A stretch of DNA of 21,970 nucleotides from positions 1 through 21,970 of IMG/VR virus record IMGVR_UViG_3300009545_000473. One strand, 5' to 3'. Under the pieces are notes generated by a model that did not search any database, was not told the origin of the DNA, and worked only from the letters and a program-made list of their open reading frames with translations. This DNA comes from a virus. Positions 3,960 through 19,495 of the stretch are shown one piece after another. The translations under genes and the position numbers were made by a program. Every line of letters starts with the position of its first letter. The stretch's first letter is position 1.

Positions 3960-4177
3960 GTCGCGCCATCCCAATGCTGCGTCTGACGCCTCAGGCCGCT
4001 GGAACACTGCAACAGCAGTACACCAAGGCTATGAAGGAACTGAACGCAATGACTCGCCATAACAAAGAGTTCGACCGGCAGTTGAAAGCGCTGATCGGTT
4101 ACGACGCACTGCGCGAATTGCATAAGGCAGCTGACAACGCCCTGTTGCTGGCCGATCTTGTGAAGGAGGCCGCATGA
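3956..4177 (+). CDS. Small helical phage protein (73 aa)
   Basis: The ATG at 3956 follows an AGGAGG ribosome site and overlaps the previous stop by 4 bases. An upstream in-frame extension to 3755 would lie wholly inside the preceding gene and is rejected. The product reads MSRAIPMLRLTPQAAGTLQQ and then a predicted helical body (YTKAMKELNAMTRHNKEFDR, LKALIGYDALRELHKAADNA). It may form a coiled coil. No family is recognised. Its stop overlaps the HD hydrolase start by 4 bases. Confidence 0.68.
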   Translation: MSRAIPMLRLTPQAAGTLQQQYTKAMKELNAMTRHNKEFDRQLKALIGYDALRELHKAADNALLLADLVKEAA

Positions 4178-4716
4178 ACTGGATCCTAACCCACACCGGC
4201 AAACGTTTTGATCTGTTCGAGCCTGACGCCGACATGATCGATCCCCGAGACATCTCCCACTCACTGGCACACCTCTGCCGCTTCAACGGGCACACCCGTG
4301 AGTTCTACAGTGTGGCGCAACATAGCTGCATCGTCGCCGAGCTGGTGCCGGAAGAACACAAGCTCACTGCCTTACTTCACGACGCGCCAGAGGCGTACCT
4401 GGGCGACATGACCAAACCACTTAAACAGTGGATACATGCATACCAGGACTTTGAAGACTGGGTATGGCAACGCGTGTGCCAGCGCTTCGACATTGCTGCA
4501 GAACTTCCTGCATGCGTTCACCAGGCCGACTTGATTGCGCTGGCCACCGAACGCCGCGACCTCAAGCCAACCGATCCGGCTATCTGGGATTGTTTGGTCG
4601 GCATACAACCTATGGCCGAAATCATCCGTCCATGGCCTGCCGCAGAAGCCCGACTCACCTACCACCAGAGCCTGATGGACCAACTCTCTGTCGAACATCG
4701 GAGGAAAGCGGCATGA
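4174..4716 (+). CDS. HD-domain phosphohydrolase (YfbR-like)
   Basis: The 180-aa protein carries the HD metal-binding pattern. His50 lies in REFYSVAQHSCIVAELV, the His69-Asp70 doublet in LTALLHDAPEAYLGDMTKPL, and a later Asp119 in HQADLIALATERRDL. Length and order fit the YfbR/HDDC2-type nucleotidases, which dephosphorylate deoxynucleoside monophosphates. The N terminus (MNWILTHTGKRFDLFEPDAD, then IDPRDISHSLAHLCRF) is typical of the phage-borne versions. In a phage it may tune nucleotide pools or handle modified nucleotides near the neighbouring DNA methyltransferase. That is inference. It overlaps both neighbours by 4 bases. Confidence 0.85.
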   Translation: MNWILTHTGKRFDLFEPDADMIDPRDISHSLAHLCRFNGHTREFYSVAQHSCIVAELVPEEHKLTALLHDAPEAYLGDMTKPLKQWIHAYQDFEDWVWQRVCQRFDIAAELPACVHQADLIALATERRDLKPTDPAIWDCLVGIQPMAEIIRPWPAAEARLTYHQSLMDQLSVEHRRKAA

Positions 4717-4997
4717 AGAACCAACAGGAAAACACCAGCGCCCTGCCCGCTTTGCTCCGCAGCACCAGTGGTGTCGACACGTCAGAAACAAACAGTCTCT
4801 GCTGCGCAGCAGCAGTCATTATTGCTCCTTCCAGCGCCACTGCCGAGGCACGTATACCCCACGAAAAGCTGCGCGGGGCAGCGGTCAGTGATGCAACGCT
4901 TACCGCTTCGGGACGCCCGCCCGCGCAGCCTGTCGTGGGGTATATGCACGTTTCGGGGAATTCCTGCTTTGCCGCGCGGGAGGCCTCCCATGCTTAA
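4713..4997 (+). CDS. Small hypothetical protein overlapping a structured RNA region (94 aa)
   Basis: The ATG at 4713 is preceded by a CGGAGGAAAG ribosome site and overlaps the HD gene stop by 4 bases, so translation is plausible. The product starts MKNQQENTSALPALLRSTSG and continues with low-complexity, Ala/Ser-rich sequence. It ends in VGYMHVSGNSCFAAREASHA and overlaps the methyltransferase start by 8 bases. Much of its 3' half is a long inverted repeat (4851-4946), so the coding potential may be secondary to RNA structure. The ending is loosely reminiscent of the poorly understood Ash/Icd-like phage frames. I am not sure of this. Confidence 0.5.
   Translation: MKNQQENTSALPALLRSTSGVDTSETNSLCCAAAVIIAPSSATAEARIPHEKLRGAAVSDATLTASGRPPAQPVVGYMHVSGNSCFAAREASHA
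4851..4946 (+). ncRNA. Long three-tier hairpin upstream of the methyltransferase (candidate regulatory RNA)
   Basis: The outer stem pairs 4851-4864 with 4933-4946; it contains TATACCCCACGA against TCGTGGGGTATA and one G-T pair. After a 3x3 internal loop, a second perfect 10-bp stem pairs GCTGCGCGGG (4868-4877) with CCCGCGCAGC (4920-4929). A third stem pairs AGCGGT (4880-4885) with ACCGCT (4902-4907). That is about 30 paired positions in 96 bases. No T-run follows, so it is not an ordinary terminator. Its position, 44 bases before a phage methyltransferase start, suggests an attenuator, an antisense-type RNA like phage C4 RNA, or a protein-binding leader. The class is not established. Confidence 0.5.
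4978..4989 (+). promoter_or_regulatory. Palindromic ribosome-binding site of the methyltransferase gene
   Basis: GGGAGGCCTCCC is a perfect 12-bp palindrome that abuts the ATG at 4990 and contains the Shine-Dalgarno GGGAGG. The RNA could fold on itself (GGGA with TCCC), or a protein could bind here, limiting translation. It fixes the start choice at 4990 rather than the upstream in-frame ATG at 4768. Confidence 0.5.
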
Positions 4998-6981
4998 GCG
5001 AATCCTCACCCACTTCCATCTCTGCTGCGGCCTCGGCAGCGGCGCTGCTGGCTTCAACGACTCCAAACCAGTCCTGGGACCAGTGCAAGCTGAATGGCGC
5101 TGCCTGGGCGGTGTTGATGTCGACCCGGCCGGGTTGCGCGACTTCCAGATGATGACCGGCGTACCTGGCACGCTCATGGACTTATTCACGCGCGAGCAAT
5201 TCACGGCGTTCCACGGCCAGCAGCCTCCCGCAGGATGGAGGGAAGCCACCGCCGAAGATCTGCGCCGCGCTGCCGGCAACGAAGATCCAGATGCAGTGTT
5301 CATAAGCAGCCCCTGCAAGGGGGCCTCGGGCCTCTTGTCCGAGACTATGAGCCAGACGCCCAAGTATCGGGCACTCAACGAGCTGACGTTGCGTTGCGTA
5401 TGGCTGATGTGCGAAGCCTGGAAGCACAACCCGGTGTCGCTGATCGTGTTCGAAAACGTACCGCGCCTGGCTACCCGTGGCCGGTACTTGTTGGACCAGA
5501 TCACCAAGCTGCTAAGGCACTACGGCTACGCGGTGGCTGAAACCACCCACGACTGTGGCGAAATTGGCGGATTGGCCCAGAGTCGAAAACGCTTCTTGCT
5601 GGTGGCCAGGCACGTAGAGAAGGTCCCGGCGTTCCTGTACGAACCAGAGAAACGCAGCCTGCGTGCCGTCGGTGACGTGCTGAGCCGCATGCCGCTGGCA
5701 GGCGATATAGATCAGGCAGGGCCGATGCACCGCGTGCCGGCGTTGCAGTGGAAAACATGGGTACGCCTAGCCCTGGTCGAGGCCGGGAAGGATTGGCGCA
5801 GCCTGAGTCGGTTTGCGATCGAGGACGGGCACCTACGCGACTTTGTGATTGTGCCTGACTACCACAACGGCGTACTCGGGGTTGTCGATTGGGACGATAC
5901 AGCCGGGGTGGTTGCAGGTGCGAGCCGCCCAATAAACGGCAAGTTTTCCGTGGCAGATCCGCGCCCCACCAACAAATTCGAGTACACCCAATTCGGTGTG
6001 CTGCCCTATGACCGCCACTGCGGTGTCGTAACCGGTCAGCGCAGCCCGGGGCAAGGGACGTTCAGCGTTGCTGACCCGCGCATGACCGGCGAGCGCCACA
6101 ATAATGTGTTCCGCGTGGTACGCAATGATCAAACCGCCGGCACTGTCACTGCAGGACACGGGCCGAGCTCTGGCGGGCAGGCCGTGGCCGACCCTCGGCA
6201 ACCGTCCAAGGGTTTCGGCAAGTACCTGGTCACCGACTACAGCAAGCCGGCAGGCACCGTCATCGCCGGAAGCACCACCGGGCAAGGCGCTTTCGCCGTG
6301 GCAGATCCCGCCTACAAAAAATGGCACCCGAATGCCAGCACGCAAAAGTTGCGGATCACGCCCTGGTGCGAGAGCGCCAAGACTGTGACTGGCTCGCAAC
6401 AGGTCGCCAGCGGCGCGTTATCGATCGCAGATCCTCGCCCAGGAATGTCGCGCACCAAGGGCGATGCATACCTGACCGGGGGGCATTATGGTGTGGTCGA
6501 CTACAACACGCCGGCCGGCGCCGTGTCCGCCAGTGCGTGCCACGACAACGGACGTTGGTCGGTTGCAGATCAGCGCATGCCGGCGCCCAACGACAGACTG
6601 ACCTGCAGAATCACCAGCCTCGATGGGACCTGGCACCGGCCGTTCACCACCCTGGAGTTGGCCGCGCTGCAATCACTATTTGACCCAGAAGATCACTGGT
6701 CAGCAGATCCACAGACCGCCCATGAGATCGAGCGCATGCAGCGCGTTCGCAAGATTGAACAGGCGGGAGTCTTCCGTCTGGACGGAATCAACGACGGCCA
6801 GCACCGGGAGCGGATTGGGAATGCAGTACCCCGTGCGGCAGCCAGGGCAATGGCCGATGTGTTCGGCATGACACTGCTGCTTTCCGAGGCAGGAGAGACG
6901 TTCATGCTCAGCAACGTTTCGGTTTGGGTGCAGCCGGTGGCGATTGCGCTGAGTGTGGCGCAGCAGGAGGTTGGCGTATGA
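4990..6981 (+). CDS. DNA (cytosine-5-)-methyltransferase with six internal repeats
   Basis: The 663-aa protein shows the C5-methyltransferase motifs in order. These are the SAM-binding THFHLCCGLGSGAAGF (7-22), the catalytic Cys109 in FISSPCKGASG (motif IV), and ENV (155-157, motif VI). GGLAQSRKRFLLVAR (193-207, motif VIII, QxRxR) and IGNAVP (609-614, motif X) follow. Motif IV reads SPCK rather than the usual PPCQ. Between motifs VIII and X, about residues 285-528 are six tandem units of about 40 aa, each with a 'VVxyxxxAGTVxAGxxxGqGxFsVADPR' pattern. This is the place of the target-recognition domain. It should methylate phage or host DNA, probably as protection against restriction. The start at 4990 has a strong GGGAGG site; an extension to 4768 would overlap the previous gene. 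Similar large enzymes occur in other Pseudomonas and Burkholderia phages (from memory). Confidence 0.93.
   Translation: MLKRILTHFHLCCGLGSGAAGFNDSKPVLGPVQAEWRCLGGVDVDPAGLRDFQMMTGVPGTLMDLFTREQFTAFHGQQPPAGWREATAEDLRRAAGNEDPDAVFISSPCKGASGLLSETMSQTPKYRALNELTLRCVWLMCEAWKHNPVSLIVFENVPRLATRGRYLLDQITKLLRHYGYAVAETTHDCGEIGGLAQSRKRFLLVARHVEKVPAFLYEPEKRSLRAVGDVLSRMPLAGDIDQAGPMHRVPALQWKTWVRLALVEAGKDWRSLSRFAIEDGHLRDFVIVPDYHNGVLGVVDWDDTAGVVAGASRPINGKFSVADPRPTNKFEYTQFGVLPYDRHCGVVTGQRSPGQGTFSVADPRMTGERHNNVFRVVRNDQTAGTVTAGHGPSSGGQAVADPRQPSKGFGKYLVTDYSKPAGTVIAGSTTGQGAFAVADPAYKKWHPNASTQKLRITPWCESAKTVTGSQQVASGALSIADPRPGMSRTKGDAYLTGGHYGVVDYNTPAGAVSASACHDNGRWSVADQRMPAPNDRLTCRITSLDGTWHRPFTTLELAALQSLFDPEDHWSADPQTAHEIERMQRVRKIEQAGVFRLDGINDGQHRERIGNAVPRAAARAMADVFGMTLLLSEAGETFMLSNVSVWVQPVAIALSVAQQEVGV
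5842..6573 (+). repeat. Six-unit protein repeat in the methyltransferase recognition region
   Basis: The units end with near-identical tags: FSVADPRP, FSVADPRM, QAVADPRQ, FAVADPAY, LSIADPRP and WSVADQRM. The spacing is about 36-48 codons. Each unit also holds an 'AG-T/V-V' core (TAGVVAG, CGVVTGQ, AGTVTAG, AGTVIAG, AKTVTGS, AGAVSAS). The repeats are diverged at DNA level, so they are old duplications and not a recent slippage product. Confidence 0.8.
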
Positions 6982-7245: not shown

Positions 7246-7740
7246 ATGAATACTCAGAAAATCGCTCCATTATTGCGCTGCCCCTTTTGCGGAAGTAATG
7301 CTCAATTCGCACACGATGGTGACGGCGGCCATTGGATTGAATGCAAACACGAACGATGCGGAGCCTCCACAAACATACGTTACAGCGTGAAGGAAGACTG
7401 CAAACCTTTGCTGACCGAACAATGGAACAATCGCGTTCGCAAAAAAAACATTAATAGGCCAACAACCTTTGACTTGTGCTCACTCGTCATGGAGTTAGAG
7501 GCCCTAAGAAACTCTGCTACAAAAGAGGAGCTTGCTCGGACCAGCACCTGGATTTGGGGGTTTCTTGCAGCCTGCAGCCAGCTGAAAGTTATTCAAAAAA
7601 TGGAAGTAAATCGACTTTTTCAACTCGTGCGTAACGCAGAAAAATATCGCAAAAAAGAGTTGGAGGCGTTTGAAAGTAAAGCTCGACTGCGCACACCTCT
7701 CCCCTGGCAAATGACCGATGCTCCGGGAGGCCATCAATGA
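7246..7740 (+). CDS. Lar-like restriction-alleviation zinc-ribbon protein
   Basis: The ATG at 7246 has an AGGAGAGG ribosome site; the frame is open upstream but without support. Residues 10-62 match the Lar family. A zinc ribbon starts LRCPFCGSNAQF (Cys12, Cys15), continues with a HWIECKHERCGAST segment (Cys33, Cys38), and ends LTEQWNNRV, the family's 'xxxAWNxR' close. The 164-aa chain is longer than classic Lar (about 65 aa). The extra C-terminal 100 residues are helical and lysine-rich and unassigned. Lar of the E. coli Rac prophage relieves type I restriction by aiding host modification. Its place beside a DNA methyltransferase supports an anti-restriction role here, which is inference. 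It overlaps the next gene by 4 bases. Confidence 0.72.
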   Translation: MNTQKIAPLLRCPFCGSNAQFAHDGDGGHWIECKHERCGASTNIRYSVKEDCKPLLTEQWNNRVRKKNINRPTTFDLCSLVMELEALRNSATKEELARTSTWIWGFLAACSQLKVIQKMEVNRLFQLVRNAEKYRKKELEAFESKARLRTPLPWQMTDAPGGHQ

Positions 7741-8723
7741 TTGCTCACAACATTATCAGCCTAAGCGGCGGCAAAGACAGCACTGCCACTCTACTGGTCG
7801 CCATTGCCCTAGAGGCACCCAACCTGCAGGCCGTCTTCGCAGACACCGGCAACGAGCACCAACAGACCTACGAGTACCTTGATTATCTGGAACAAGCCAC
7901 ATGCACAAAAATAACCCGGGTGCGCGCTGACTTTACCCAGCGCATTGAAGGTAAGCGCCGATTTATCGAATCTAAGTGGCGGGCGCAAGGTATCGCAGAG
8001 GAGGTTGTGCTTGCAGCGCTGGACGTGCTGCAGCCCACCGGCAACCCTTTCCTAGATCTGTGCATCTGGAAAGGCCGGTTCCCTAGCCGCAAGGCCCAGT
8101 TCTGCACCATGGAGCTGAAGCGTGACCCTATGCTTGAGCAAGTAGTCATGCCTTTGATGGGTGCCGGCGACATGATTCTGAGCTGGCAGGGTGTGCGCGC
8201 AGACGAGTCGCTAAACAGACGATATCTGCCGGAATGCGACGAAGTCGGTGGTGGCCTGTTCAACTACCGCCCGATCTTGAAGTGGGATGTCCCGGCGGTG
8301 TTCGAAGCTCACCGCTACATGTGCATCAAACCGAATCCGCTTTATTCACAAGGCATGGGGCGTGTCGGTTGCATGCCCTGCATCAACTGCCGCAAGGATG
8401 AATTACGCGAGATTGCCCTGCGGTTCCCCGAAGCGATTGACCGGATCGATCGCTGGGAGCGAACCGTCCAGCAGGCCAGCAAACGCGGTGCTGCCACGTT
8501 CTTTGCCGGATCAAATGCCAAGCATCCGAAAGGCTCAATCTCGGGCATGACAGCCATTGAAGTCATGGAGATCGCAAGCATCCGCCAGGCCGTTGAATGG
8601 TCCAAGACAGCCCGAGGCGGCATCCAATACGACCTGATGATTGCTACTGACGCCTCTGCCTGCTCCAGCGCCTACGGGCTCTGCGAGTCGGCCTGGGAGC
8701 CAGTAACCTTGGAGGTAGCATGA
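7737..8723 (+). CDS. PAPS-reductase-family (PP-loop) protein
   Basis: This 328-aa protein has the ATP-pyrophosphatase PP-loop SGGKDSTATLL (residues 10-20), then a FADTGNEHQQTYEYL motif of the adenine-nucleotide alpha hydrolase fold. Later it has FCTMELKRDPM (about 128-138) and GCMPCINCRKDELREIALRF, a Cys cluster that could bind metal or an iron-sulfur cluster. Cellular CysH reduces PAPS to sulfite, but phage members often sit beside DNA-modification genes and resemble DndC, the phosphorothioation enzyme, in these Cys motifs. Its substrate here is unknown. The other Dnd proteins are not in this window. It is coupled by 4-base overlaps to both neighbours. Confidence 0.82.
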   Translation: MIAHNIISLSGGKDSTATLLVAIALEAPNLQAVFADTGNEHQQTYEYLDYLEQATCTKITRVRADFTQRIEGKRRFIESKWRAQGIAEEVVLAALDVLQPTGNPFLDLCIWKGRFPSRKAQFCTMELKRDPMLEQVVMPLMGAGDMILSWQGVRADESLNRRYLPECDEVGGGLFNYRPILKWDVPAVFEAHRYMCIKPNPLYSQGMGRVGCMPCINCRKDELREIALRFPEAIDRIDRWERTVQQASKRGAATFFAGSNAKHPKGSISGMTAIEVMEIASIRQAVEWSKTARGGIQYDLMIATDASACSSAYGLCESAWEPVTLEVA

Positions 8724-8926
8724 GCGCAGCCCGTGTACTTGAGTTTGAAGACTTACAACGCGTAACGGGATATAGCCGCCGGGCAGACGTTGAAAAAACG
8801 TTGCGCTCCCAAGGGATTCGAATTTTCAGTGGACGAAAGGGGCCCTGGACTACGGTGGATTTGATCAACCAGGCGGGCGGGCTAAAACCCGTGGATACCG
8901 ACAGCTACAGTGCGGACATCGTATGA
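8720..8926 (+). CDS. DUF4224-type small protein upstream of integrase
   Basis: The 68-aa product has the DUF4224 pattern: a start of LEFEDLQRVTGYSRRADVEK followed by TLRSQGIRIFSGRKGPWTTV. Proteins of this type occur directly upstream of phage tyrosine integrases and may act as small DNA-binding partners or excisionase-like factors. That role is suggested by context and fold and is not proven. It overlaps the upstream gene and the integrase start by 4 bases each, so integrase translation is likely coupled to it. Confidence 0.8.
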   Translation: MSAARVLEFEDLQRVTGYSRRADVEKTLRSQGIRIFSGRKGPWTTVDLINQAGGLKPVDTDSYSADIV

Positions 8927-10071
8927 AACGTGGTCGAAAGCGCCAACACAATCCAAACATCCCTGGGCACATTGACCAGGCGGCTTTGCCGCGCTCGGTC
9001 TATTTCGACCATAGGGGCGCTGGGTGCTGGTACATCCTGTATTTCAATGAGGCCGGGCGGCGACAGCGGCAGAACCTTTGCGCGGGTAATGTGACGCTTT
9101 CAGAGCTTCACCGCCTCATCGAGGAGCGCAACGGCGTAGACCGCGACAGCCTGCAATACCTCTGTGATGAGTTCCACAAGAGTGACCAGTACAAGGTCCT
9201 CAGCGAGAAAACCCACGACGACTATGTCTACTCCCGCGACGTGCTTCTGGCGTTCCCGACGAAGCTTGGCAAACCGCTGGGCGAACTGGCGGTGCTCAAG
9301 TTCACGCCGGCGCTCGTCCAGCGGATCATCGACAAGATAGCCCAGGATGGCACTCCCTCCAAAGCCGCTCACTCACTGCGCTACCTGCGCCGAGTAATGC
9401 AGTGGGGCCGTAACCGTGGTTTTGTGAAGGACAACCCGGCTAAGGGCATTGAGTCGCCGAAAGAGCGCAAGCAGCGCCGACTGCCCGAAGACACGGTCAT
9501 GGTCAACCTGATCAGGTTCGCAAAGCAGCAAGGCCAACTCAAGAGCGGCCAGGCTGGGGCCTGCTCGCCTTACCTGTGGTATGTGATGGAGATTGGATAC
9601 CTGTGCCGCCTGCGCGGGATCGAGACGATCACACTCACCGACGAGAACGAACTCAACGAAGGGGTGCTCACCAACCGTCGTAAAGGCAGTCGGGACAATA
9701 TCGTCAGGTGGACTCCTCGGCTGCGTGCCGCCTGGGACGCGGCCAAGGCCGTCAGGTCAGAAACGTGGGAGCGGAAGCGAGTGCCGGTGCCAATCCGAGC
9801 AGACCAGCGCTTCCTTATTATTGCCGCTACCGGCAGGCAGTTATCGAAGTCAGGGCTTGATACAGCCTTCCAGCGACTGATAATGCAAGCGATTGAGAAG
9901 AAGGTGCTCACTGAAGAGCAGAGGTTTGGGATGCACGACTTTAAGCGTAAGGGCATCACCGATACGGTGGGCACCCGGGCAGACAAGCAACAAGCGTCAG
10001 GCCATAAAGACGAATCGATGATGGACGTTTACGATCTCAGCGTGCCGACAGTTAATCCATCTTCGGAGTGA
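8923..10071 (+). CDS. int: Prophage tyrosine integrase
   Basis: This 382-aa site-specific recombinase has an N-terminal arm-binding region (about 20-75) and a SAM-like core-binding domain (about 76-180). The catalytic domain has Arg231 in YLCRLRGIETITL, Lys254 in NRRKGSRDN, and His338 with Lys341 in GMHDFKRKGITDT. His361 lies in ASGHKDESMM and the nucleophile is Tyr370 in MDVYDLS. The second box reads HxxK rather than HxxR, a variant known in phage integrases of this type. It is the last rightward gene of the prophage, and its 3' end overlaps the convergent PIN-like gene by 20 bases. The nearest tRNA-derived att candidate is 1.9 kb to the right, with the two-gene cargo module between. Confidence 0.92.
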   Translation: MKRGRKRQHNPNIPGHIDQAALPRSVYFDHRGAGCWYILYFNEAGRRQRQNLCAGNVTLSELHRLIEERNGVDRDSLQYLCDEFHKSDQYKVLSEKTHDDYVYSRDVLLAFPTKLGKPLGELAVLKFTPALVQRIIDKIAQDGTPSKAAHSLRYLRRVMQWGRNRGFVKDNPAKGIESPKERKQRRLPEDTVMVNLIRFAKQQGQLKSGQAGACSPYLWYVMEIGYLCRLRGIETITLTDENELNEGVLTNRRKGSRDNIVRWTPRLRAAWDAAKAVRSETWERKRVPVPIRADQRFLIIAATGRQLSKSGLDTAFQRLIMQAIEKKVLTEEQRFGMHDFKRKGITDTVGTRADKQQASGHKDESMMDVYDLSVPTVNPSSE

Positions 10072-10705
10072 AAAGTTTTATAACATCAACCATGTAACTT
10101 TTAAGACATTCAGTACAGTGCTGTTCATCTCGGCCGTCGCCAAACGCAGAACGAAGAACTTTATCGTACTTCTTCTCACTTACTTGCTTTCGAGCAACTG
10201 ACACGCGCTCATTGACATACTCATATCCGGCATAGTTAATGAGTCTTAACATTGAAGACTCCAGACAATCGACATTTCCAGGGAGGAAAGAAAAGGCGGT
10301 ATCAAAATGCTCGTACGAACAGATCGCGGAGAGCGCCCTTTTATCGCCTGTCAGTATCTTGAACTCTTCGCCCCAGCCGTGACGATCGCTTGCATGTAGA
10401 AACAATGCAAACTCTCCGGGATCAACCTCATCGATCTGTTGCATGTGATCGATCAAATCAAAATCAACTTTAGCGTCATTGAGCACGCTGCATTGCTCAA
10501 GAAACCCGCAAATTCGTTCGTAAGCCTGTGAGCTTCCGACGTATTTTTCGATGGATTTGTCTGGATCTTTCAAGCGCAGGCTGTAGGGGAGACTAGAAAG
10601 GACGAAGCAGTCTTTGGCGCCTGAATTTAAGCTACCGAGGGTGTCTTGCAGTAGATCACATTGTGCAAGCTTGATCACCAAGTCGTTATCGGACAGTAGG
10701 ATCAT
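10052..10705 (-). CDS. PIN-like nuclease/toxin protein
   Basis: The 217-aa product begins MILLSDNDLVIKLAQCDLLQ, with acidic residues at 6 and 8. It has Glu98 in EVDPGEFALFLHA and Asp121 in FKILTGDKRALSAI. This order of acidic residues and the 'TGDkRaL' box match the PIN-like metal-dependent RNase fold. A C-terminal domain carries a CTEC pair (HCTECLKSYM) and is unassigned. The gene overlaps the upstream ImmA/IrrE gene by 4 bases and so is translated with it. A PIN nuclease with a protease partner suggests a toxin or defence module, but the partner is not a standard antitoxin. The call is moderate because PIN sequences diverge widely. Confidence 0.65.
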   Translation of the reverse strand: MILLSDNDLVIKLAQCDLLQDTLGSLNSGAKDCFVLSSLPYSLRLKDPDKSIEKYVGSSQAYERICGFLEQCSVLNDAKVDFDLIDHMQQIDEVDPGEFALFLHASDRHGWGEEFKILTGDKRALSAICSYEHFDTAFSFLPGNVDCLESSMLRLINYAGYEYVNERVSVARKQVSEKKYDKVLRSAFGDGRDEQHCTECLKSYMVDVIKLFTPKMD

Positions 10706-11682
10706 TCAGGGTCAACTAGAGCCCTTAGCAAGTCGAGACTATCTTCTTTAATCTCTTCCGCAAGATTTGAAAACAAATAACTAGACACTAAAGCTTTATC
10801 ACTCACACCTTGAGCCAAAAGCTTAAGCGTTTTAGTACACAATGGCCAAAAATTACCATTGTGAGCACAGTTTAATAAAACATGAGTTGGATCAATATGA
10901 TTCGCAGAACCATAGTTATTTACAACCCTAGCAAGATCTGGAGCCGGCATAAAACGACCTAGCCGCAGCTTAGCTGATGCTTTTCCCGCTAGAAGCTCAA
11001 GTGCAAACTCATCTGCCGCAACTTCATCATCATCACGACCGTCATCGTTTTTTGCAATTTCCGTATCAACGATGGCGCCATTAGCGTCCACATGTCCTAA
11101 AGCGATATGTCCAAGCTCGTGAGCTAGGTGAAAAAGCAAATAGCCGCACTCTTTCTTCGACGAAAGAACAATCGATGGGCGATTATTTGTAGACATGGCA
11201 ATACCATCCATCTTTTTCTTCATAATTGAAGAAGCAAGATGAATCACGGGAATTCCACATTCCCAGCAATAGTCCAGTAGGTCACTCAGGCCAACCCAAG
11301 GCTTGCCAGAAGCCAATATCTGACTCCGAATCTCAGCGGCCGAGACGGGGCGCACATAAGGGCGCTCAATATTGGACAGTACGATTTTGGAAGCACTGCG
11401 AGCCAGAGCTACCGCAAGCTCAACGTCGTCAGCAGTCGTCCCCTTTATGAGCTTGAAACGGCGCTGCTCAGGCAAATCAAACTCGATACGCGCAGGCGTC
11501 TCGGCAATTGACCGAAGCTTCAGATTCAAGGCACGCGCCAAGATGAACTTAGCCTGCTGGAGACCGCTAGGCGTCTCAGCTATCTCGTCATCCCACCAAG
11601 CAGGTAGAAACGCCTGTACCTGCCGCTTAGGCAGGCCATGGGCTCTGAACGCACTGTAAAGGCTTTGCATAGATTCAGTCAT
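10702..11682 (-). CDS. ImmA/IrrE-family metallopeptidase
   Basis: The 326-aa protein contains the zinc-protease site LFHLAHELGHIALGHVD (His188, Glu189, His192), then an acidic region and DDDEVAADEFALELLAG, which supplies the third ligand. This is the ImmA/IrrE (COG2856) arrangement. These enzymes often cleave XRE-type repressors. The N-terminal 130 residues include a MTESMQSLYSAFRAHGLPKR segment that may be a degenerate helix-turn-helix, but no clear one is seen. The GGAGG ribosome site is 7 bases before the ATG. The gene heads a two-gene leftward operon with the PIN-like nuclease at the edge of the prophage, a typical place for cargo expressed during lysogeny. Confidence 0.85.
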   Translation of the reverse strand: MTESMQSLYSAFRAHGLPKRQVQAFLPAWWDDEIAETPSGLQQAKFILARALNLKLRSIAETPARIEFDLPEQRRFKLIKGTTADDVELAVALARSASKIVLSNIERPYVRPVSAAEIRSQILASGKPWVGLSDLLDYCWECGIPVIHLASSIMKKKMDGIAMSTNNRPSIVLSSKKECGYLLFHLAHELGHIALGHVDANGAIVDTEIAKNDDGRDDDEVAADEFALELLAGKASAKLRLGRFMPAPDLARVVNNYGSANHIDPTHVLLNCAHNGNFWPLCTKTLKLLAQGVSDKALVSSYLFSNLAEEIKEDSLDLLRALVDPE

Positions 11683-12018: not shown

Positions 12019-12061
12019 CATTAGGCTCCATTGCATTCTACTGAATGCTCTGGAAGCCCCG

Positions 12062-12087
12062 AAAACCCGCCCTTTGGCGGGTTTTTT
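12062..12087 (+). terminator. Rho-independent terminator downstream of the tRNA-Thr fragment
   Basis: AAAACCCGCC (62-71 of this block), a CTTT loop and GGCGGGTTTT form a perfect 10-bp stem ending in a run of six T. It lies 44 bases after the CCA end and is probably the native terminator of the tRNA-Thr gene carried along with the att sequence. It also insulates the P4-type integrase from upstream transcription. Confidence 0.85.
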
Positions 12088-12182
12088 CGTTCCAGGACCC
12101 TCTGTCGGGATCCAACAAAATCCCCCTTCCCCGAGGGTATGTTAGGGGTACTGCGATTTTCCGGTCAGGAGCGCGTACCCCT

Positions 12183-13511
12183 ATGCCACGTCTAGCGATC
12201 CCTCTCAGCGACCTGCAATGCCGCACGGCCAAAACCCGCGAGCGCGCTTACAAACTGTTCGACGGTGGCGGCATGTACCTTTTCGTCAAACCCAATGGCG
12301 TGAAGACCTGGCGCTTGAAGTACACCAAGCCCAACGGCAAGGAAGGTACGCTCATCATCGGCAATTACCCCATCGTTACCCTTTCCGTCGCACGACGTAA
12401 GCGAGACGAAGCCAAGGCGTTGCTGCTCGACAACCTCGACCCAATGGAAGAAAAGAAGAAGGCCAAGATCGTAGCCCAGCGGGTGGCACTGCTTTTCGAA
12501 ACCGTTGCCCTGGAGTGGCACGCTGATATGTCCCGCCGCTGGACCGAAGGACACGCGAAAACCGTAATGAGCCGACTGCGCACCCACGTCTTCCCGCTGA
12601 TCGGCCAACGACCCATCGCTGAGCTCGATACCCACGACCTGCTAGAGATCACCCAGCGCATCAAGGAACGCGGCACCATGGATGTGGCGTTAAGGGTACA
12701 GAACTACTTATCCACCATCATGCGCGGGGCCAAAAGGGCTCGGCAGATCACCATGAATCCTGCACTGGATCTGGCAGGCTCGATTCACGCGCCACGCACA
12801 ATCCATCGTCCGGCCCTATCCCTCAACCGCCTACCCGAATTGCTACACCGTATCGACAACTACAACGGCCGCGAGCTAACGCGCCTTGCTGTGCTACTGA
12901 CTCTGCATGTATTCGTCCGCTCCAGCGAACTGCGCTTCGCTCGATGGAGTGAGTTCGACTTCCAACGCGCCATGTGGGAAATCCCCGATACGCGCGCACC
13001 GATTGAAGGGGTACGCAACTCCACACGCGGGACCAAGATGAACGGCGACATTCAAATGGTTCCGCTATCGCCGCAGGTCATCGAAATACTGGAGCGCCTG
13101 CGCAGCCTCAGTCGCTTTTCAGAGTTGGTGCTACCGGGCGACCACAAGTACTGGAAGCCCATGTCCGAGAACACAGTGAACACCATGCTCCGCAACGTCG
13201 GCTATGACACCAGCAAGGACGTGTGCGGCCACGGCTTCAGGACCATGGCCTGTAGCGCCCTGCTGGAGTCCGGGTTATGGACCGACGCAGCCATCGAAAG
13301 ACAAATGAGCCACAAGGAACGCAACCGCGTGCGTGCCGCGTATATCCACAAAGCTGAATTTCTGGAGCAGCGCCGGCTGATCATGGCGTGGTGGAGCAAC
13401 TACATCGACGCCAACCGCCATGGGCATGTGACGCCCCACGAATTCGCTCACCCCGTCGGCGACAACATCACCGCCCTACAAAATAGCCGTGGCGCATCCA
13501 AACGTGGGTAA
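12183..13511 (+). CDS. intS-like: P4-type tyrosine integrase of the second island
   Basis: The 442-aa enzyme has the usual P4 integrase layout. A DUF4102-type N-terminal domain (PRLAIPLSDLQCRTAKTRER, then YLFVKPNGVKTWRLKY) is followed by a core-binding domain and a catalytic domain. Catalytic residues are Arg246 in VFVRSSELRFARW, Lys285 in RGTKMNGD, His350 with Arg353 in CGHGFRTMA, His377 in MSHKERN and Tyr387 in RAAYIHK. The ATG at 12183 is preferred to the upstream 12045 start because family members begin near 'MPRxxxPL' and the upstream extension covers a terminator. AGGAG lies upstream. The gene reads away from the tRNA-Thr fragment, the standard place of such integrases. It should recombine at that tRNA 3' end. 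Confidence 0.94.
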   Translation: MPRLAIPLSDLQCRTAKTRERAYKLFDGGGMYLFVKPNGVKTWRLKYTKPNGKEGTLIIGNYPIVTLSVARRKRDEAKALLLDNLDPMEEKKKAKIVAQRVALLFETVALEWHADMSRRWTEGHAKTVMSRLRTHVFPLIGQRPIAELDTHDLLEITQRIKERGTMDVALRVQNYLSTIMRGAKRARQITMNPALDLAGSIHAPRTIHRPALSLNRLPELLHRIDNYNGRELTRLAVLLTLHVFVRSSELRFARWSEFDFQRAMWEIPDTRAPIEGVRNSTRGTKMNGDIQMVPLSPQVIEILERLRSLSRFSELVLPGDHKYWKPMSENTVNTMLRNVGYDTSKDVCGHGFRTMACSALLESGLWTDAAIERQMSHKERNRVRAAYIHKAEFLEQRRLIMAWWSNYIDANRHGHVTPHEFAHPVGDNITALQNSRGASKRG

Positions 13512-14211: not shown

Positions 14212-14414
14212 AGTCTCCACCCGCCCACCGGAATCGGTGTTCAGGAGGCCAGATCATGAGATGCCCAAGCTCCCGGTCGTAAAGAGCCGCCAGTCCCGCG
14301 TTAGTGGACAACCCTCACAGGTCGCAGGGGCCTTGATCCCTGATAACACTCAACATCCATGGCGGGATGACGTGGGGGAAGCTTCAAACGTTTGGCTTGA
14401 AGAGGAGTTCGATC

Positions 14415-15395
14415 ATGGGATTGGTGGGTAGGCGAGATGGACGCAATTTTGGCTATGGCCGGCAACTGAGCTATGCAGGACCGCAGGCATTGAAAGACCT
14501 GTTTGGCGGTGGGCATTACGGGACGGTCAAAGCACACAGTGATCGGTGGCAGGCGTTTGTACGCTGGTGTCGGTCGGAGGATGGGCCAGGCGTCAACGAT
14601 GCGCGACAGATTGATCGGCAGACCTTGCTGGACTACACCGAGCATCTGCGCCAACAAGTTGAACACGGTGCTATCGGCATCGCCACTGCGCAAAACCGGT
14701 TGTCCAGTGTGAATCGGACCATGGCCGCGCTTCGCGGAGATCAGTATGTGAAAGTGCCGAGTCCGAGCAAGTCGTTGGGAATGCAGCGCACCAGTGTTCG
14801 TTGCTCGGTTCCGCAAGGCCAAGACCGCGAACAGGTGAAGCGGATCGTAGACGTGCTCTGCGAACACCAAATGCCGCGCGCGGCGGCCATCGCTCAGTTG
14901 GCGCGAGCCACCGGCATGCGCTTGCGCGAGGCGATTTTGGCCGACCTTCCCCGTCTAAAACGTGAAGCCAAGCAATTCGAAAAGATCAACATCCAGGACG
15001 GCACCAAAGGTGGCCGTTCAGGCGCGTCAGCACCTCGTTGGATTACGATAGATGATCATATTCGTGACGCGCTGAGGTTTGCCGAACAGGTCTCACCCGA
15101 CAGTAGCCGCAACCTACTTGCACCGGACGAAAGCTACCTCGATTTCCAACGGGGAATCGCCCGCCCCGCCCGAGATATCCTCCATCAGCACAACCTCAAA
15201 GGCTTCCACGAATTGCGGGCGGCTTATGCGTGCGAACGCTATGAGCAAATCACCCAGCATCCCGCGCCCATCAACGGCGGCCGTTGCTATCAGCTCGACC
15301 AACGCCTCGATCGGGAGGCACGAGACCAAGTCAGCTATGAGCTGGGGCACGGCCGTATCGACGTGGTGTCGGCTTACATTGGCAGTCGAACATGA
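14415..15395 (+). CDS. Integrase_1-type tyrosine recombinase
   Basis: This 326-aa protein matches the 'integrase domain-containing' proteins of Pseudomonas islands. It has a SAM-like N-terminal domain (about 25-110, GTVKAHSDRWQAFVRWCRSE) and a catalytic domain. Arg169 or Arg171 lies in TGMRLREAIL, Lys198 in DGTKGGRSG, His265 and Arg268 in GFHELRAAYACERY, His312 in YELGHGRID, and the nucleophile Tyr321 in VSAYIGS. The ATG at 14415 follows AAGAGGAG; an in-frame start at 14367 lacks such a site. It is only distantly like the P4-type integrase nearby. Its job may be a second recombination event, such as an inversion or an insertion. The target is unknown. Confidence 0.83.
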   Translation: MGLVGRRDGRNFGYGRQLSYAGPQALKDLFGGGHYGTVKAHSDRWQAFVRWCRSEDGPGVNDARQIDRQTLLDYTEHLRQQVEHGAIGIATAQNRLSSVNRTMAALRGDQYVKVPSPSKSLGMQRTSVRCSVPQGQDREQVKRIVDVLCEHQMPRAAAIAQLARATGMRLREAILADLPRLKREAKQFEKINIQDGTKGGRSGASAPRWITIDDHIRDALRFAEQVSPDSSRNLLAPDESYLDFQRGIARPARDILHQHNLKGFHELRAAYACERYEQITQHPAPINGGRCYQLDQRLDREARDQVSYELGHGRIDVVSAYIGSRT

Positions 15396-15861: not shown

Positions 15862-17244
15862 ATGCCATTAAGTTACGAGCAGTACCAAGAGGAAGTGACC
15901 TCCGACATACTTAACGTTCTCGGCCAGGCCGCATGCCAGCCCATCTTATTTGTCGGATCCGGCTTTTCGAAAAGATACTCTAAGGGGCCAAGTTGGGAGG
16001 AACTGCTAAAAGTCCTGGCTTCGAGATGCCCAAACATTAGCTTGGACTTGGCTTACTACAAACAAAAGAATAAAAGCCTAGTTGAGATTGGAAGTATATT
16101 TTCTGACTGCTTTCGTGAGTGGGCGTGGACTGAGGGTAGAGATGAATTTCCTGCGGAATACTTTTCTGAAGAATACCCGTCTGATATTTTTATAAAATAT
16201 ACAATTGTAACTATTTTGAATGGAATGGGACCAAGTGAAACTGGTTCTTATGGCGCAGACGACTTAGATGCTGAAATAGCAGCCCTACAGTCTATGAGTC
16301 CGCACGCGCTTATCACCACCAACTACGACCAATTATTAGAGCTGATTTTTCCAGATTTCGAGCGAGTAGTAGGTCAGCAGGTACTAAGCAAGCCTTATTT
16401 GTCGGTTGGCGAAATTTTTAAGATACACGGATGCATTTCAGACCCTTTATCGCTTGTATTAACTGATGAGGATTATCAGGTCTTTGAGGCAGATAAAAAG
16501 TACTTAAGCGCAAAGCTACTCACATACTTCGCAGAGCACCCGCTTCTATTTGTTGGGTACCGAGCTGAAGACCCTAATATAAAAAGCATATTATATGATG
16601 TCACTCGCATGTTTAAAGCAAGCCAGGCTTTAACTCCAAATATTTACATACTGGAATGGGATAAAGATGTAAACGAATCGTCTTATCCTGCTCGTGAAAG
16701 AATCATCAACGTCGGAGAAGATGTGACAATTCGCGTAAAAAGCATTACAGCATCGTCCTTTGAGTGGGTATTTAAGGCGTTCGGAAACAATGGAACTTTA
16801 GAGCAGATTAACGTAAAGCTACTTCGAGCATTAATGGCGCGGGCCTTCAATCTGGTGAGGAGGGATACTCTGGCAAAACAGGTAGAGGTAAATTTCTCTA
16901 TGCTAGAACATGCCGTAGAGAGCGATGAGAACTTCGCCAAAATATTAGGCATCACATCTCTGGATGGGCCTGCCAGTGTAAATGCTAATTATCCGTACAC
17001 TCTCCAGTTAGTCGCGGAGAAGCTTGGATTTAATAGCTGGAATGGTGCGCACAAGCTAATTGAAACATTGGAGCAAATGACAGGCTTTGATATGAAAAAC
17101 TCCGACAACCCATACCACTTCAAATTAAAAACCGGAAAGTCGGCGAGTAGCTTTACTAGAAAATACTCGGAAGCTGCGGTCATCTTGCTTGGGAGGGTTC
17201 AGTCTGGCGAGAGCTTCAAATTGGCTCCAGGCTGCTCGACCTAG
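15862..17244 (+). CDS. SIR2-domain protein (SIR2_2 type), candidate defence NADase
   Basis: The 460-aa protein shows the sirtuin-like motifs of bacterial defence NADases. These are PILFVGSGFSKRYSKGPSW (27-45), ITTNYDQLLE (151-160, with Asn154 and Asp156), KIHGCISDPLSLVLT (187-201, His189) and LLFVGYRAEDPNIKSI (228-243). The last is the 'GYxxxDPxI' box of the SIR2_2 family. Residues about 1-300 are the SIR2 domain. The C-terminal 160 residues are unassigned and may sense infection or hold the enzyme inactive. SIR2 proteins in Thoeris, Dsr, SIR2-HerA and related systems deplete NAD+ when triggered, which gives the defence call. GCGAGGGA precedes the ATG. The DNA is clearly AT-richer than its neighbours, a sign of separate acquisition. 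No HerA, TIR or Argonaute partner lies beside it. Confidence 0.85.
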   Translation: MPLSYEQYQEEVTSDILNVLGQAACQPILFVGSGFSKRYSKGPSWEELLKVLASRCPNISLDLAYYKQKNKSLVEIGSIFSDCFREWAWTEGRDEFPAEYFSEEYPSDIFIKYTIVTILNGMGPSETGSYGADDLDAEIAALQSMSPHALITTNYDQLLELIFPDFERVVGQQVLSKPYLSVGEIFKIHGCISDPLSLVLTDEDYQVFEADKKYLSAKLLTYFAEHPLLFVGYRAEDPNIKSILYDVTRMFKASQALTPNIYILEWDKDVNESSYPARERIINVGEDVTIRVKSITASSFEWVFKAFGNNGTLEQINVKLLRALMARAFNLVRRDTLAKQVEVNFSMLEHAVESDENFAKILGITSLDGPASVNANYPYTLQLVAEKLGFNSWNGAHKLIETLEQMTGFDMKNSDNPYHFKLKTGKSASSFTRKYSEAAVILLGRVQSGESFKLAPGCST

Positions 17245-17623: not shown

Positions 17624-19495
17624 ATGAAAAAAACGTCACCCCTGGCCCAAAATAAAGAACTTGATATCGAAGAGAAAATTCTAGGTGACCAACGATTCCT
17701 AGATCTAAGAATCTATTTCAATTTTGATTTTTCTATATTCTCCACGCCCCCTGGAACAATACAACAAGAAGATAACGGAATTCACAGCTATAAAAAATTC
17801 AAAAAATTCCAAGAGAATCAGAGATCAGAGTTCTCGCGACTAATATACAACGCAACGAAATCTTCAAACCTCGGGCAAGATTTTGAGGCGCATGCCAGCT
17901 TCCTAATGCAACTACCAAAAAATCGTTTTAGCTTTGGACTACTAACAAAGCATATTAGTAAGTTTGAGGATTATGCAAAAAAATGCATTAGTAAAAGATA
18001 TGCAGACCCTCAATCACTCGCCTCAATTGCAATCCCTGCTCTGATCCAACCATTGTATCATTGGTCAGAAGCAGTGGATGATGATCAGCGAAATTCTTTA
18101 ATGCTGCAAATCGAAGATCTTATCCATAACCTCAACAAAACTCTTCCTCCCTCTACAATAATTTCCGGCTCCGCAGAATTTAAAAGCTACATTTTATTCG
18201 CTTATATAATAGTTGCTGAAATCCTGAAACTCGGATTATCCAGCGCAATATTGGCATATCATCTGGTTTATTTCAGACAGCAAAGCGTATCCACTTGGGC
18301 AAACATCCATCCTAGAGAGCGCTTGTTATTCTCTGTAATATCGCTACATACTTTTTTACGCTTTTACAACAAAAGTGATTCTTTCTCGCCAAAATATGGA
18401 TTCAGCCATAACACCTTTACTGACCTGCATGCGCTAATGTACGACGCGTACGACGCATGTAGTAGCTTGGGATTAATCACCGCAGGCCAGGTTTTCATGT
18501 GGGTTGTCGAGCGCATTGAATCAGAAGCACTCGCCTACAATGACCTTGCAGGCGGCAGGCGCGCATTGAAAGGATTAACTCCAACAGAAACAAGATCAGT
18601 AGTCGAGTTGGTTAAGCGCTTTTCCTCCTATCGAATTCCAGTCACTGTCGAACGAGTTGAACGCTTTCTTGCTCAATTCGTAACTACTGGACGAATAAGG
18701 GCGGCATTAAAACTACTGAATCATTTAAAATTCTACCCTCTTTGGCAGCTTGGGGAAGCCATGGAGAGTATGTTAAGAACCGAATCAGAAAATCATGGAA
18801 AAATCGTCGTCGCCCCTTTGGGGGATCGAACAGGTAGCACTGCCATAATAAACTACCTAATATCTCACTCTGGATTAACTAGCATAGTTTTTGCTGACGA
18901 TTTGGTACATGCGATAAGTCTAACGAAGGCAGGAGATCGGATATATTTTGTCGATGACTGCACCCTCAGCGGCACGCAATCTATTCATATTATGCAGGAA
19001 CTAATGGGTGAACGCATTTTAAAACCTCACCACACCAAACATTGCGATGCTCTTTCAAAATCCCAGCAAACAGCCGTATGTAAACGGACACTGGTGTTTG
19101 CTTACTGCTTAGCCTGTGATACTGCAATTAATCGTATGAAAGACGAGCTTTCCAAGCTTCATTACGGAAAGATTAATTTTGAAATTATTTACGACATTCC
19201 CGAACCTTCAAAATCCAAAGCATTTACCTCTGCAAGCGCTGTGCCTTGGGAAAGCCAGACTGAAAGGGACGACCTAAAAAAATACTGTGCTGATATGGGA
19301 TATTCAATACTTGAGAAAATGGCTATAGATAAGGGATGGGACGAAGAACGGAGATTGGAAAGCTCTCTAGGCTATTCTGACTTCCAGCGACTTTTAGTAT
19401 TTCCATATAGCGTACCTAAAACCACTTTACCTATCCTTTGGACAGAGGGAAATTCGGAGGTCAAGTGGATGCCTCTCTTCCCTGTCCTCGACTAG
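17624..19495 (+). CDS. Large protein with wHTH-like and phosphoribosyltransferase-like (PRTase-CE) domains
   Basis: The 623-aa protein has three visible parts. Residues 1-315 are a helical domain of unknown function (FLDLRIYFNFDFSIF near the start, then several leucine-rich helices). Residues about 318-385 contain TPTETRSVVELVKRFSSYRI and FLAQFVTTGRIRAALKLLNH, which look like a winged helix. Residues about 390-620 form a PRTase-like domain, with KIVVAPLGDRTGSTAII (393-409) and the PRPP-loop-like IYFVDDCTLSGTQS (440-453, Asp444-Asp445). It ends with YSDFQRLLVFPYSVPKTTLP and LWTEG/WMPLFP. This ending is shared by PRTase-CE proteins predicted in bacterial conflict systems. Such enzymes are thought to act on nucleotide-ribose substrates. 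The ribosome site is weak. AT-rich, like the SIR2 gene. Confidence 0.75.
   Translation: MKKTSPLAQNKELDIEEKILGDQRFLDLRIYFNFDFSIFSTPPGTIQQEDNGIHSYKKFKKFQENQRSEFSRLIYNATKSSNLGQDFEAHASFLMQLPKNRFSFGLLTKHISKFEDYAKKCISKRYADPQSLASIAIPALIQPLYHWSEAVDDDQRNSLMLQIEDLIHNLNKTLPPSTIISGSAEFKSYILFAYIIVAEILKLGLSSAILAYHLVYFRQQSVSTWANIHPRERLLFSVISLHTFLRFYNKSDSFSPKYGFSHNTFTDLHALMYDAYDACSSLGLITAGQVFMWVVERIESEALAYNDLAGGRRALKGLTPTETRSVVELVKRFSSYRIPVTVERVERFLAQFVTTGRIRAALKLLNHLKFYPLWQLGEAMESMLRTESENHGKIVVAPLGDRTGSTAIINYLISHSGLTSIVFADDLVHAISLTKAGDRIYFVDDCTLSGTQSIHIMQELMGERILKPHHTKHCDALSKSQQTAVCKRTLVFAYCLACDTAINRMKDELSKLHYGKINFEIIYDIPEPSKSKAFTSASAVPWESQTERDDLKKYCADMGYSILEKMAIDKGWDEERRLESSLGYSDFQRLLVFPYSVPKTTLPILWTEGNSEVKWMPLFPVLD

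What the first reader, a model, noticed from the sequence alone, without database searches (positions are those of the whole stretch)
5842..6573. Six diverged repeats fill the target-recognition region of the C5-methyltransferase
Units ending in VADPR-like tags recur six times between motif VIII and motif X, where other C5 enzymes hold a single target-recognition domain. This suggests a modular recognition surface, perhaps for several sequences or for multi-site binding, as in multispecific phage methyltransferases. The catalytic box is SPCK rather than PPCQ, another unusual point.
Basis: partly seen in the sequence, partly recalled or inferred. Interest (0 to 1): 0.6.

Follow-up and report, generated by a model that had tools for sequence, protein, structure and literature searches.

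The report
Phage methyltransferase with shuffled recognition modules
This Pseudomonas prophage gene encodes a DNA-methylating enzyme carrying a row of interchangeable 40-residue modules that relatives swap, add and lose, which probably lets one enzyme mark several DNA sequences and so slip past several bacterial restriction systems.

Summary
The gene at 4990-6981 (+) encodes a 663-residue C5-cytosine methyltransferase. Six diverged repeats of 38-46 residues (5845-6576) lie between motifs VIII and IX. Relatives show what the array is. In 252 distinct homologous proteins the repeat number runs from 3 to 10, units fall into about 13 sequence types (6 to 66, depending on the cut-off), and 51 orders occur. 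The first unit is almost always one type and the last always another. In 17 separate pairs of enzymes with nearly identical catalytic cores, whole units are replaced by unrelated ones. The units are under strong purifying selection. Columns that tell types apart flank a shared TV-like dipeptide, as in known target-recognition domains. Profile comparison links the units to arrays in a second phage m5C family, whose tested members partly protect many sequences, and links that family to a recognition domain of the SPbeta enzyme. Best reading: a multispecific methyltransferase with exchangeable recognition cassettes, probably for anti-restriction. No methylated motif is shown, AlphaFold did not resolve the array, and a loosely specific single surface remains possible. 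The lysine beside the catalytic cysteine (PCK, not PCQ) is a family hallmark.

The parts
4990..6981 (+). C5-cytosine DNA methyltransferase gene, 663 aa; ATG at 4990 (the longer GTG ORF from 4768 is not supported by homologues)
   Evidence: PF00145 4e-8; phrog_116 DNA methyltransferase 7.2e-49 over residues 3-660; Foldseek of the core to M.HaeIII/M.HhaI/DNMT1
5011..5055 (+). motif I (AdoMet loop) HFHLCCGLGSGAAGF
   Evidence: alignment A1; motif names recalled
5299..5334 (+). motif IV FISSPCKGASGL with catalytic Cys109 and Lys110
   Evidence: P108 C109 K110 invariant in A1/A2; PCK 252 of 252
5449..5466 (+). motif VI FENVPR
   Evidence: 252 of 252 homologues
5578..5592 (+). motif VIII QSRKR
   Evidence: QSRxR in 249 of 252
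5845..5964 (+). unit 1, type A (almost always first)
5965..6081 (+). unit 2, type D
6082..6198 (+). unit 3, type E, with TV dipeptide
6199..6312 (+). unit 4, type C, with TV dipeptide
6313..6438 (+). unit 5, type F, with TV dipeptide
6439..6576 (+). unit 6, type B (always last), AV in place of TV
6631..6672 (+). motif IX WHRPFTTLELAALQ
   Evidence: WHRPFTT in 251 of 252; four searches used part of this stretch as a seed
6814..6831 (+). motif X IGNAVP
   Evidence: 243 of 252
7246..7740 (+). Lar-like restriction-alleviation protein just downstream: a second anti-restriction function in the same region
   Evidence: PF14354 9.7e-9, phrog_599 7.4e-8

Best explanation
The enzyme is a prophage-borne, stand-alone C5-cytosine methyltransferase with one catalytic core and a row of exchangeable target-recognition modules. 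Each unit keeps a shared scaffold (hGV..W....GTV........G.hSVADPR). It varies in two short stretches before and after the TV-like dipeptide; these are the likely base-reading loops, like recognition loops I and II of M.HhaI (recalled). One module at a time would dock against the core's active-site cleft, so that one enzyme methylates several different sequences and protects phage DNA from several host restriction enzymes. Phages change their coverage by swapping, adding or losing whole units. Shown: the C5 core, the tandem units, variation in number and order, cassette replacement, purifying selection, and a profile link to other TRD arrays. Inferred: that units touch DNA, that different types read different sequences, one-at-a-time docking, and the anti-restriction purpose. 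The three units with a Thr-Val dipeptide (3, 4, 5) are the likeliest active readers. Units 1 and 6, fixed at the ends, may instead be structural caps.
For: All C5 motifs I, IV, VI, VIII, IX and X are present, and the core model matches M.HaeIII, M.HhaI and DNMT1. Of 402 sequences with the gene, 397 hold it in full and give 252 distinct proteins with 3-10 units, 13 types and 51 architectures; type A is first in 251 of 252 and type B last in 252 of 252. In 70 representatives with under 90% core identity, 31 architectures need at least 41 changes on the core tree, and both E/C order (44 against 3) and C/F order (16 against 3) occur. In 17 non-overlapping pairs with at least 94% core identity but different architecture, 29 of 93 units have no partner above 70% nt identity while 51 of 93 have one of at least 80%. 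Example: L084/L315 has N-core 0.99, units A 1.00, D 0.98 and C 0.94, then an E unit at 0.61, an added F, B 0.89 and C-core 0.93. Type-telling columns cluster at unit positions 2-9 and 23-30 plus 32-33; scaffold columns 12, 15, 20, 22, 31 and 35-39 are shared. dN/dS is 0.07 for all units and 0.02-0.15 per unit, against 0.03 for the N-core, in 54 relatives of the same architecture. Unit profile against second-family unit profile: hhalign 19.3, probability 60, E 8.8e-5; 60 column-permuted controls reach at most 10.55 and the reversed profile 7.15. Second-family unit against SPbeta-like TRD: 20.3 against a maximum of 16.4 in 100 controls. [quoted passage not shown] A Lar-like restriction-alleviation gene lies nearby.
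Against: No methylome or protection assay exists here. Two AlphaFold jobs gave pLDDT of about 25-45 over the units, so neither fold nor DNA contact is shown. A direct profile comparison of the window's units with SPbeta-like enzymes found nothing (11.6, controls up to 17.0), so the link to known TRDs runs through the second family only, with modest probabilities (60 and 9). Only 3 of 6 window units carry the Thr of the dipeptide, and type B carries Ala in 150 of 156 distinct sequences. The second-family enzyme of Sinorhizobium phi2LM21 was inactive in E. coli (PMC5537653 passage).
Confidence: 0.66

Rival explanations
1. Relaxed specificity: the array as a whole forms one broad, loosely specific DNA-binding surface, and the enzyme methylates short, degenerate targets (such as CC or GC) rather than several defined sequences, one per unit.
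For: Authors who assayed members of the second family call them relaxed in specificity, with partial protection of many sites (PMC3925955, PMC5537653, PMC6536676 passages). Partial protection fits weak, broad binding. Units without the Thr dipeptide residue are common.
Against: Units fall into discrete, conserved types with type-specific loop letters and are exchanged as wholes. A non-specific surface would not need this. Many sites protected is also what several specific modules would give.
Confidence: 0.2
2. Only one unit (most likely the last, type B, next to motif IX) is the true recognition domain. The others are a scaffold, spacer or protein-binding repeats.
For: B is last in 252 of 252. 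AlphaFold leaves the array unstructured.
Against: Middle units are as constrained as the last (omega 0.02-0.07), and their variable stretches are type-conserved. B lacks the Thr in 150 of 156, the opposite of what the sole reader should show. Scaffold repeats would not be expected to be swapped for unrelated types in near-identical cores.
Confidence: 0.09
3. The units read features other than DNA sequence (for example protein partners, packaging or replication machinery) and target the enzyme to places rather than sequences.
For: Second-family genes often lie near replication modules (PMC5537653 passage).
Against: The array sits in the TRD slot. Neighbouring genes are not conserved around the window family: the commonest window neighbour tested (PrtN-like) lies within 2.5 kb in 15 of 133 representatives, and the PAPS reductase in 2 (not every representative had 2.5 kb of flank).
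Confidence: 0.04

Closest known systems
Multispecific C5 methyltransferases of Bacillus phages SPbeta, phi3T, rho11, SPR, H2 (mtbP group)
   Same: One C5 core with tandem recognition domains of about 40 residues between motifs VIII and IX, each with a T(L/V/I) dipeptide (recalled). Stand-alone, in temperate phages. SPbeta mtbP read directly.
   Different: mtbP shows two such stretches; here there are 3 to 10 units of a strongly repetitive, tag-ended type (xADPR). Motif IV is PCK here, PCP in mtbP and PCQ in its kin. No direct profile match of units; cores align only at hhalign probability 56.
Relaxed-specificity phage m5C methyltransferases (JCM7686_0772/_2655, Phi2LM21_p23, Pyei1_p05, ARM81mr_p29, RR1-A, F116 p10)
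   Same: Phage C5 enzymes of 550-700 aa with rows of P..T[IV]T units mostly 32-45 residues apart. Motif IV is PDC followed by K, T or R. Unit profiles match. F116 carries one near its LexA-like gene, the region where its kin H66 and LKA5 carry the window's family.
   Different: No sequence match by BLASTP and only E 0.016 by profile, so a separate family. Units lack the ADPR tag. Some members have been assayed; none of the window's family has, as far as my searches show.
M.HhaI / M.HaeIII (single TRD)
   Same: Core fold, and the TL dipeptide between two recognition loops (recalled for M.HhaI).
   Different: One recognition domain, PCQ motif (recalled).

Membership tests
C5-cytosine DNA methyltransferase | Motifs I, IV (PC), VI (ENV), VIII (QxRxR), IX, X in order | tested here: met
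   PF00145 4e-8
C5-cytosine DNA methyltransferase | Class I methyltransferase fold like M.HhaI | tested here: met
   Foldseek: M.HaeIII 1dct E 1.8e-8, M.HhaI 2uz4 1.8e-8; core pLDDT mostly above 80-90
C5-cytosine DNA methyltransferase | Catalytic activity at C5 of cytosine | not testable with these tools
   no assay possible
Multispecific C5 methyltransferase (SPbeta kind) | Tandem modules of about 40 aa between motifs VIII and IX | tested here: met
Multispecific C5 methyltransferase (SPbeta kind) | T(L/V/I) dipeptide in every module (recalled) | tested here: inconclusive
   3 of 6 window units; the hydrophobic partner is kept in all six; type B has Ala in 150 of 156
Multispecific C5 methyltransferase (SPbeta kind) | Modules homologous to SPbeta TRDs | tested here: inconclusive
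   direct test negative; indirect link through the second family positive
Multispecific C5 methyltransferase (SPbeta kind) | Several defined target sequences, one per module | not testable with these tools
   needs methylome data
Relaxed-specificity phage m5C family (JCM7686_0772 group) | Sequence relationship of the whole enzyme | tested here: not met
   BLASTP of RR1-A against the window finds only short scraps, best E 0.73; profile E 0.016

The most novel reading that the evidence does not exclude
A natural combinatorial code for cytosine methylation: a phage-borne reservoir of dozens of interchangeable recognition cassettes (3-10 per enzyme, caps A and B fixed, middle free). Each reads its own short sequence, so temperate phages reassort protection against restriction by recombination at unit boundaries, and the enzymes described as relaxed in specificity are really multispecific arrays of the same design. 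A weaker addition that nothing excludes: the invariant Lys next to the catalytic Cys alters cofactor use or chemistry.
Probability: 0.45. Interest if true: 0.8.

Novelty: new variant of a known kind. Interest (0 to 1): 0.62.

Why it matters
How one C5 core picks among several recognition domains has, to my knowledge, never been seen in a structure. A family with up to ten units, natural swaps in near-identical cores and unit types conserved across Pseudomonadota turns that into a direct experiment: exchange one unit, read the methylome. It would also recast phage enzymes described as relaxed in specificity as multispecific, give a dictionary of unit type to motif for predicting which restriction systems a phage withstands, and offer parts for cytosine methyltransferases of chosen specificity. 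In my ten paper searches I saw no paper that describes the unit arrays of this family; most subscription journals are not in that library.

Tried and rejected
Structure: AlphaFold on the window protein with an 81-row alignment and on a four-unit relative with a 60-row one gave a good core but pLDDT of about 25-45 over the units in both. No fold claim is made for the units, and no structure search was run on the second model.

Direct homology to SPbeta TRDs by profile: no match, score 11.6 within the control range. A sequence search of the PDB, single and with the A2 profile, gave no hit.

Recent transfer of whole units between distant cores: no unit of at least 93% nt identity in proteins with under 75% core identity. 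Swapping is therefore seen within lineages of near-identical cores, not across distant ones.

A fixed gene partner (for example the PAPS reductase, raising a hypermodification idea): rejected as a rule for the window's family, since the window's PAPS reductase has a relative within 2.5 kb in 2 of 133 representatives.

Cut-off dependence: unit types number 6, 13, 26, 39 or 66 at distance cut-offs 0.60, 0.55, 0.50, 0.45 and 0.40; architecture counts use 0.55. Counts are lower bounds on diversity: four scans kept only the best 80 loci (of 330, 575, 582, 582), all scans searched from conserved seeds, and some contigs were fetched more than once. Dropped before counting: L085, L137, L048, L083 and L072 (cut or broken genes). 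Two proteins have a unit that the model reads only in part or misses (L155, L115). No same-architecture control was run for the cassette pairs.

Literature: the key Trautner/Noyer-Weidner papers and the Murphy 2013 review are not held. What I say of their contents is recalled or taken from citing passages. Papers were seen as passages only (PMC12707154, PMC8936443, PMC5923457, PMC5537653, PMC3925955, PMC6536676, PMC13028781, PMC8616854); others only as search listings.

Full report
What is there. The open frame at 4990-6981 encodes a 663-residue C5-cytosine methyltransferase. PF00145 matches at 4e-8 and phrog_116, a phage DNA methyltransferase profile, matches residues 3-660 at 7.2e-49. All expected motifs are in order: HFHLCCGLGSG (I), SSPCKG (IV), FENVPR (VI), QSRKR (VIII), WHRPFTTLELAALQ (IX), IGNAVP (X) (motif numbering recalled). 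The predicted core matches M.HaeIII, M.HhaI and DNMT1 structures. The nearest relatives are Pseudomonas prophages: identical or nearly identical genes occur in IMG/VR contigs and a 98% one in a Pseudomonas genome.

The repeats. They are 21-44% identical, and their mean pairwise score is 56.4 against 19.0 +/- 1.0 in 1000 shuffles (maximum 24.4).

Relatives. Phage records, four scans of viral contigs and one of bacterial genomes gave, with the window, 402 sequences with the gene. Five cut or broken genes were dropped. The remaining 397 hold 252 distinct proteins. Unit number is 3 (1 protein), 4 (7), 5 (75), 6 (147), 7 (15), 8 (6) or 10 (1). Clustering 909 distinct unit sequences at one cut-off gives 13 types in 51 architectures; the number of types depends on the cut-off (6 to 66). 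Type A is first in 251 of 252 and type B last in 252 of 252. The middle is free: the window is A-D-E-C-F-B, others are A-D-C-E-F-B, A-D-E-F-C-B, A-D-G-B, A-A-D-L-A-K-E-F-C-B and so on. On a tree of the core (70 representatives under 90% core identity, from the first 182 proteins) the 31 architectures need at least 41 changes, unit number 24, presence of F 15, C 10, E 9 and G 7. Both orders occur for E/C (44 against 3) and C/F (16 against 3). Loss from a fixed ancestral order cannot explain reversed orders.

Cassette exchange. Among proteins with at least 94% core identity but different architecture I took 17 non-overlapping pairs. Of their 93 units, 51 have a partner of at least 80% nt identity, 13 of 70-80%, and 29 have none above 70%. 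L084 and L315 show it most clearly: N-core 0.99, first three units 1.00, 0.98 and 0.94, then a replaced unit (0.61) and an added F unit, then B 0.89 and C-core 0.93. I did not run a same-architecture control for these pairs. No near-identical unit was found in distant cores, so exchange is seen within lineages, and a donor was not traced.

Constraint. In 54 relatives of the window's own architecture dN/dS is 0.03 for the N-core, 0.07 for all units together, and 0.02 (C) to 0.15 (A) for single units. The units are maintained, not decaying.

Anatomy of a unit. In 70 representatives the shared columns are V12, W15, G20, V22, G31 and VADPR 35-39. The columns that tell types apart are 2-9 on one side of the TV-like dipeptide (21-22) and 23-30, 32-33 on the other. 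M.HhaI has two recognition loops on either side of a strand, the second with a TL dipeptide (recalled); the arrangement agrees. Window units 3, 4 and 5 read TV, units 1 and 2 VV, unit 6 AV. Type B has Ala in 150 of 156 distinct sequences. This makes the end units candidates for caps.

Link to known recognition domains. A direct profile comparison with SPbeta mtbP and eight related phage enzymes failed (score 11.6, controls to 17.0). A paper on Sinorhizobium prophages led to a second phage m5C family of about 700 residues (PMC5537653 passages). RR1-A, Pyei1_p05, ARM81mr_p29, F116 p10 and RcapNL carry rows of P..T[IV]T units mostly 32-45 residues apart, far more than shuffles give; ARM81ld_p31 and phi2LM21_p23 show fewer by this pattern (P 0.004 and 0.05). 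By my reading the first one or two anchors, and one internal one in RR1-A, are not units, leaving about 9 in RR1-A, 8 in Pyei1, 7 in F116, 6 in RcapNL, 5 in ARM81mr. By eye, unit types are shared and reordered there too. The window family's unit profile matches that family's unit profile (19.3, probability 60; 60 permuted controls at most 10.55, reversed 7.15), on the dipeptide. That profile in turn matches mtbP residues 344-371 (20.3, E 0.0037, though probability only 9; 100 permuted controls at most 16.4). The whole enzymes are not detectably alike (BLASTP scraps; profile E 0.016), so this is a separate family of the same design.

What the second family does. [quoted passage not shown] Pyei1_p05, whose array I read, is about 69% identical to them (PMC6536676 passage). 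The authors call this relaxed specificity; an array of several readers would look the same in such assays. Phi2LM21_p23 was inactive in E. coli.

Motif IV. Lys follows the catalytic Cys in 252 of 252 window-family proteins; 24 of 24 control C5 enzymes have Gln, though two of my scans used a PCK seed. The second family has K, T or R there. The Gln in M.HhaI lines the cofactor pocket (recalled). I draw no functional conclusion.

Structure. Two AlphaFold runs left the array unresolved. Whether the units are flexible beads or the alignments too shallow cannot be told.

Verdict. Multispecific C5 methyltransferase with exchangeable recognition cassettes, probably anti-restriction: 0.66. One broad relaxed surface: 0.20. 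Single reader plus scaffold: 0.09. It works like the SPbeta enzymes. Membership in that group is not claimed, because the module homology is only indirect and the several specificities are untested.

Noticed in passing
window 7246-7740 (+): Lar-like restriction-alleviation protein (PF14354 9.7e-9), close to the methyltransferase: a second anti-restriction gene in the early region.
   Followed up: partly
window 7737-8723 (+): PAPS-reductase-family protein, nearest PADLOC model SspD (3.3e-24). A PAPS reductase also follows the methyltransferase in phage D14A (L084) and the second-family gene in RR1-A (L443), though relatives of the window's one are rare as neighbours overall.
   Followed up: partly
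window 15862-17244 and 17624-19495 (+): SIR2-like protein (PF13289; PADLOC PDC-S25 4.9e-79) followed by a PRTase-CE protein (PF24390; PADLOC PRTase_III-A 2.6e-20): looks like a defence locus beside the prophage.
   Followed up: no
window 10052-11682 (-): Two-gene unit of an IrrE/M78-like metallopeptidase (PADLOC RmrA and PD-Lambda-2 weak matches) and a partner without family, just outside the integrase at 8923-10071.
   Followed up: no
window 12045-13511 and 14367-15395 (+): Two further integrase-like genes (with that at 8923-10071, three in 6.5 kb), suggesting stacked mobile elements; no tRNA found in the window.
   Followed up: no
L447 (F116) versus L076 (H66) and L078 (LKA5): Near the LexA-like gene of related Hollowayvirus genomes either the second-family or the window-family methyltransferase is found, as if interchangeable.
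   Followed up: partly
L083 (phage PA8) and L048: Broken copies of the gene: in both, the reading frame is split between two open frames.
   Followed up: no
phiCTX records S75107 / D13409, 25-210: A C-terminal remnant (62 residues, 61% identity) of this methyltransferase lies in the phiCTX fragments.
   Followed up: no
window 4174-4716 (+): Deoxyribonucleoside 5' monophosphate phosphatase (phrog_318 5.4e-67), with relatives within 2.5 kb of the methyltransferase in 12 of 133 representatives.
   Followed up: partly
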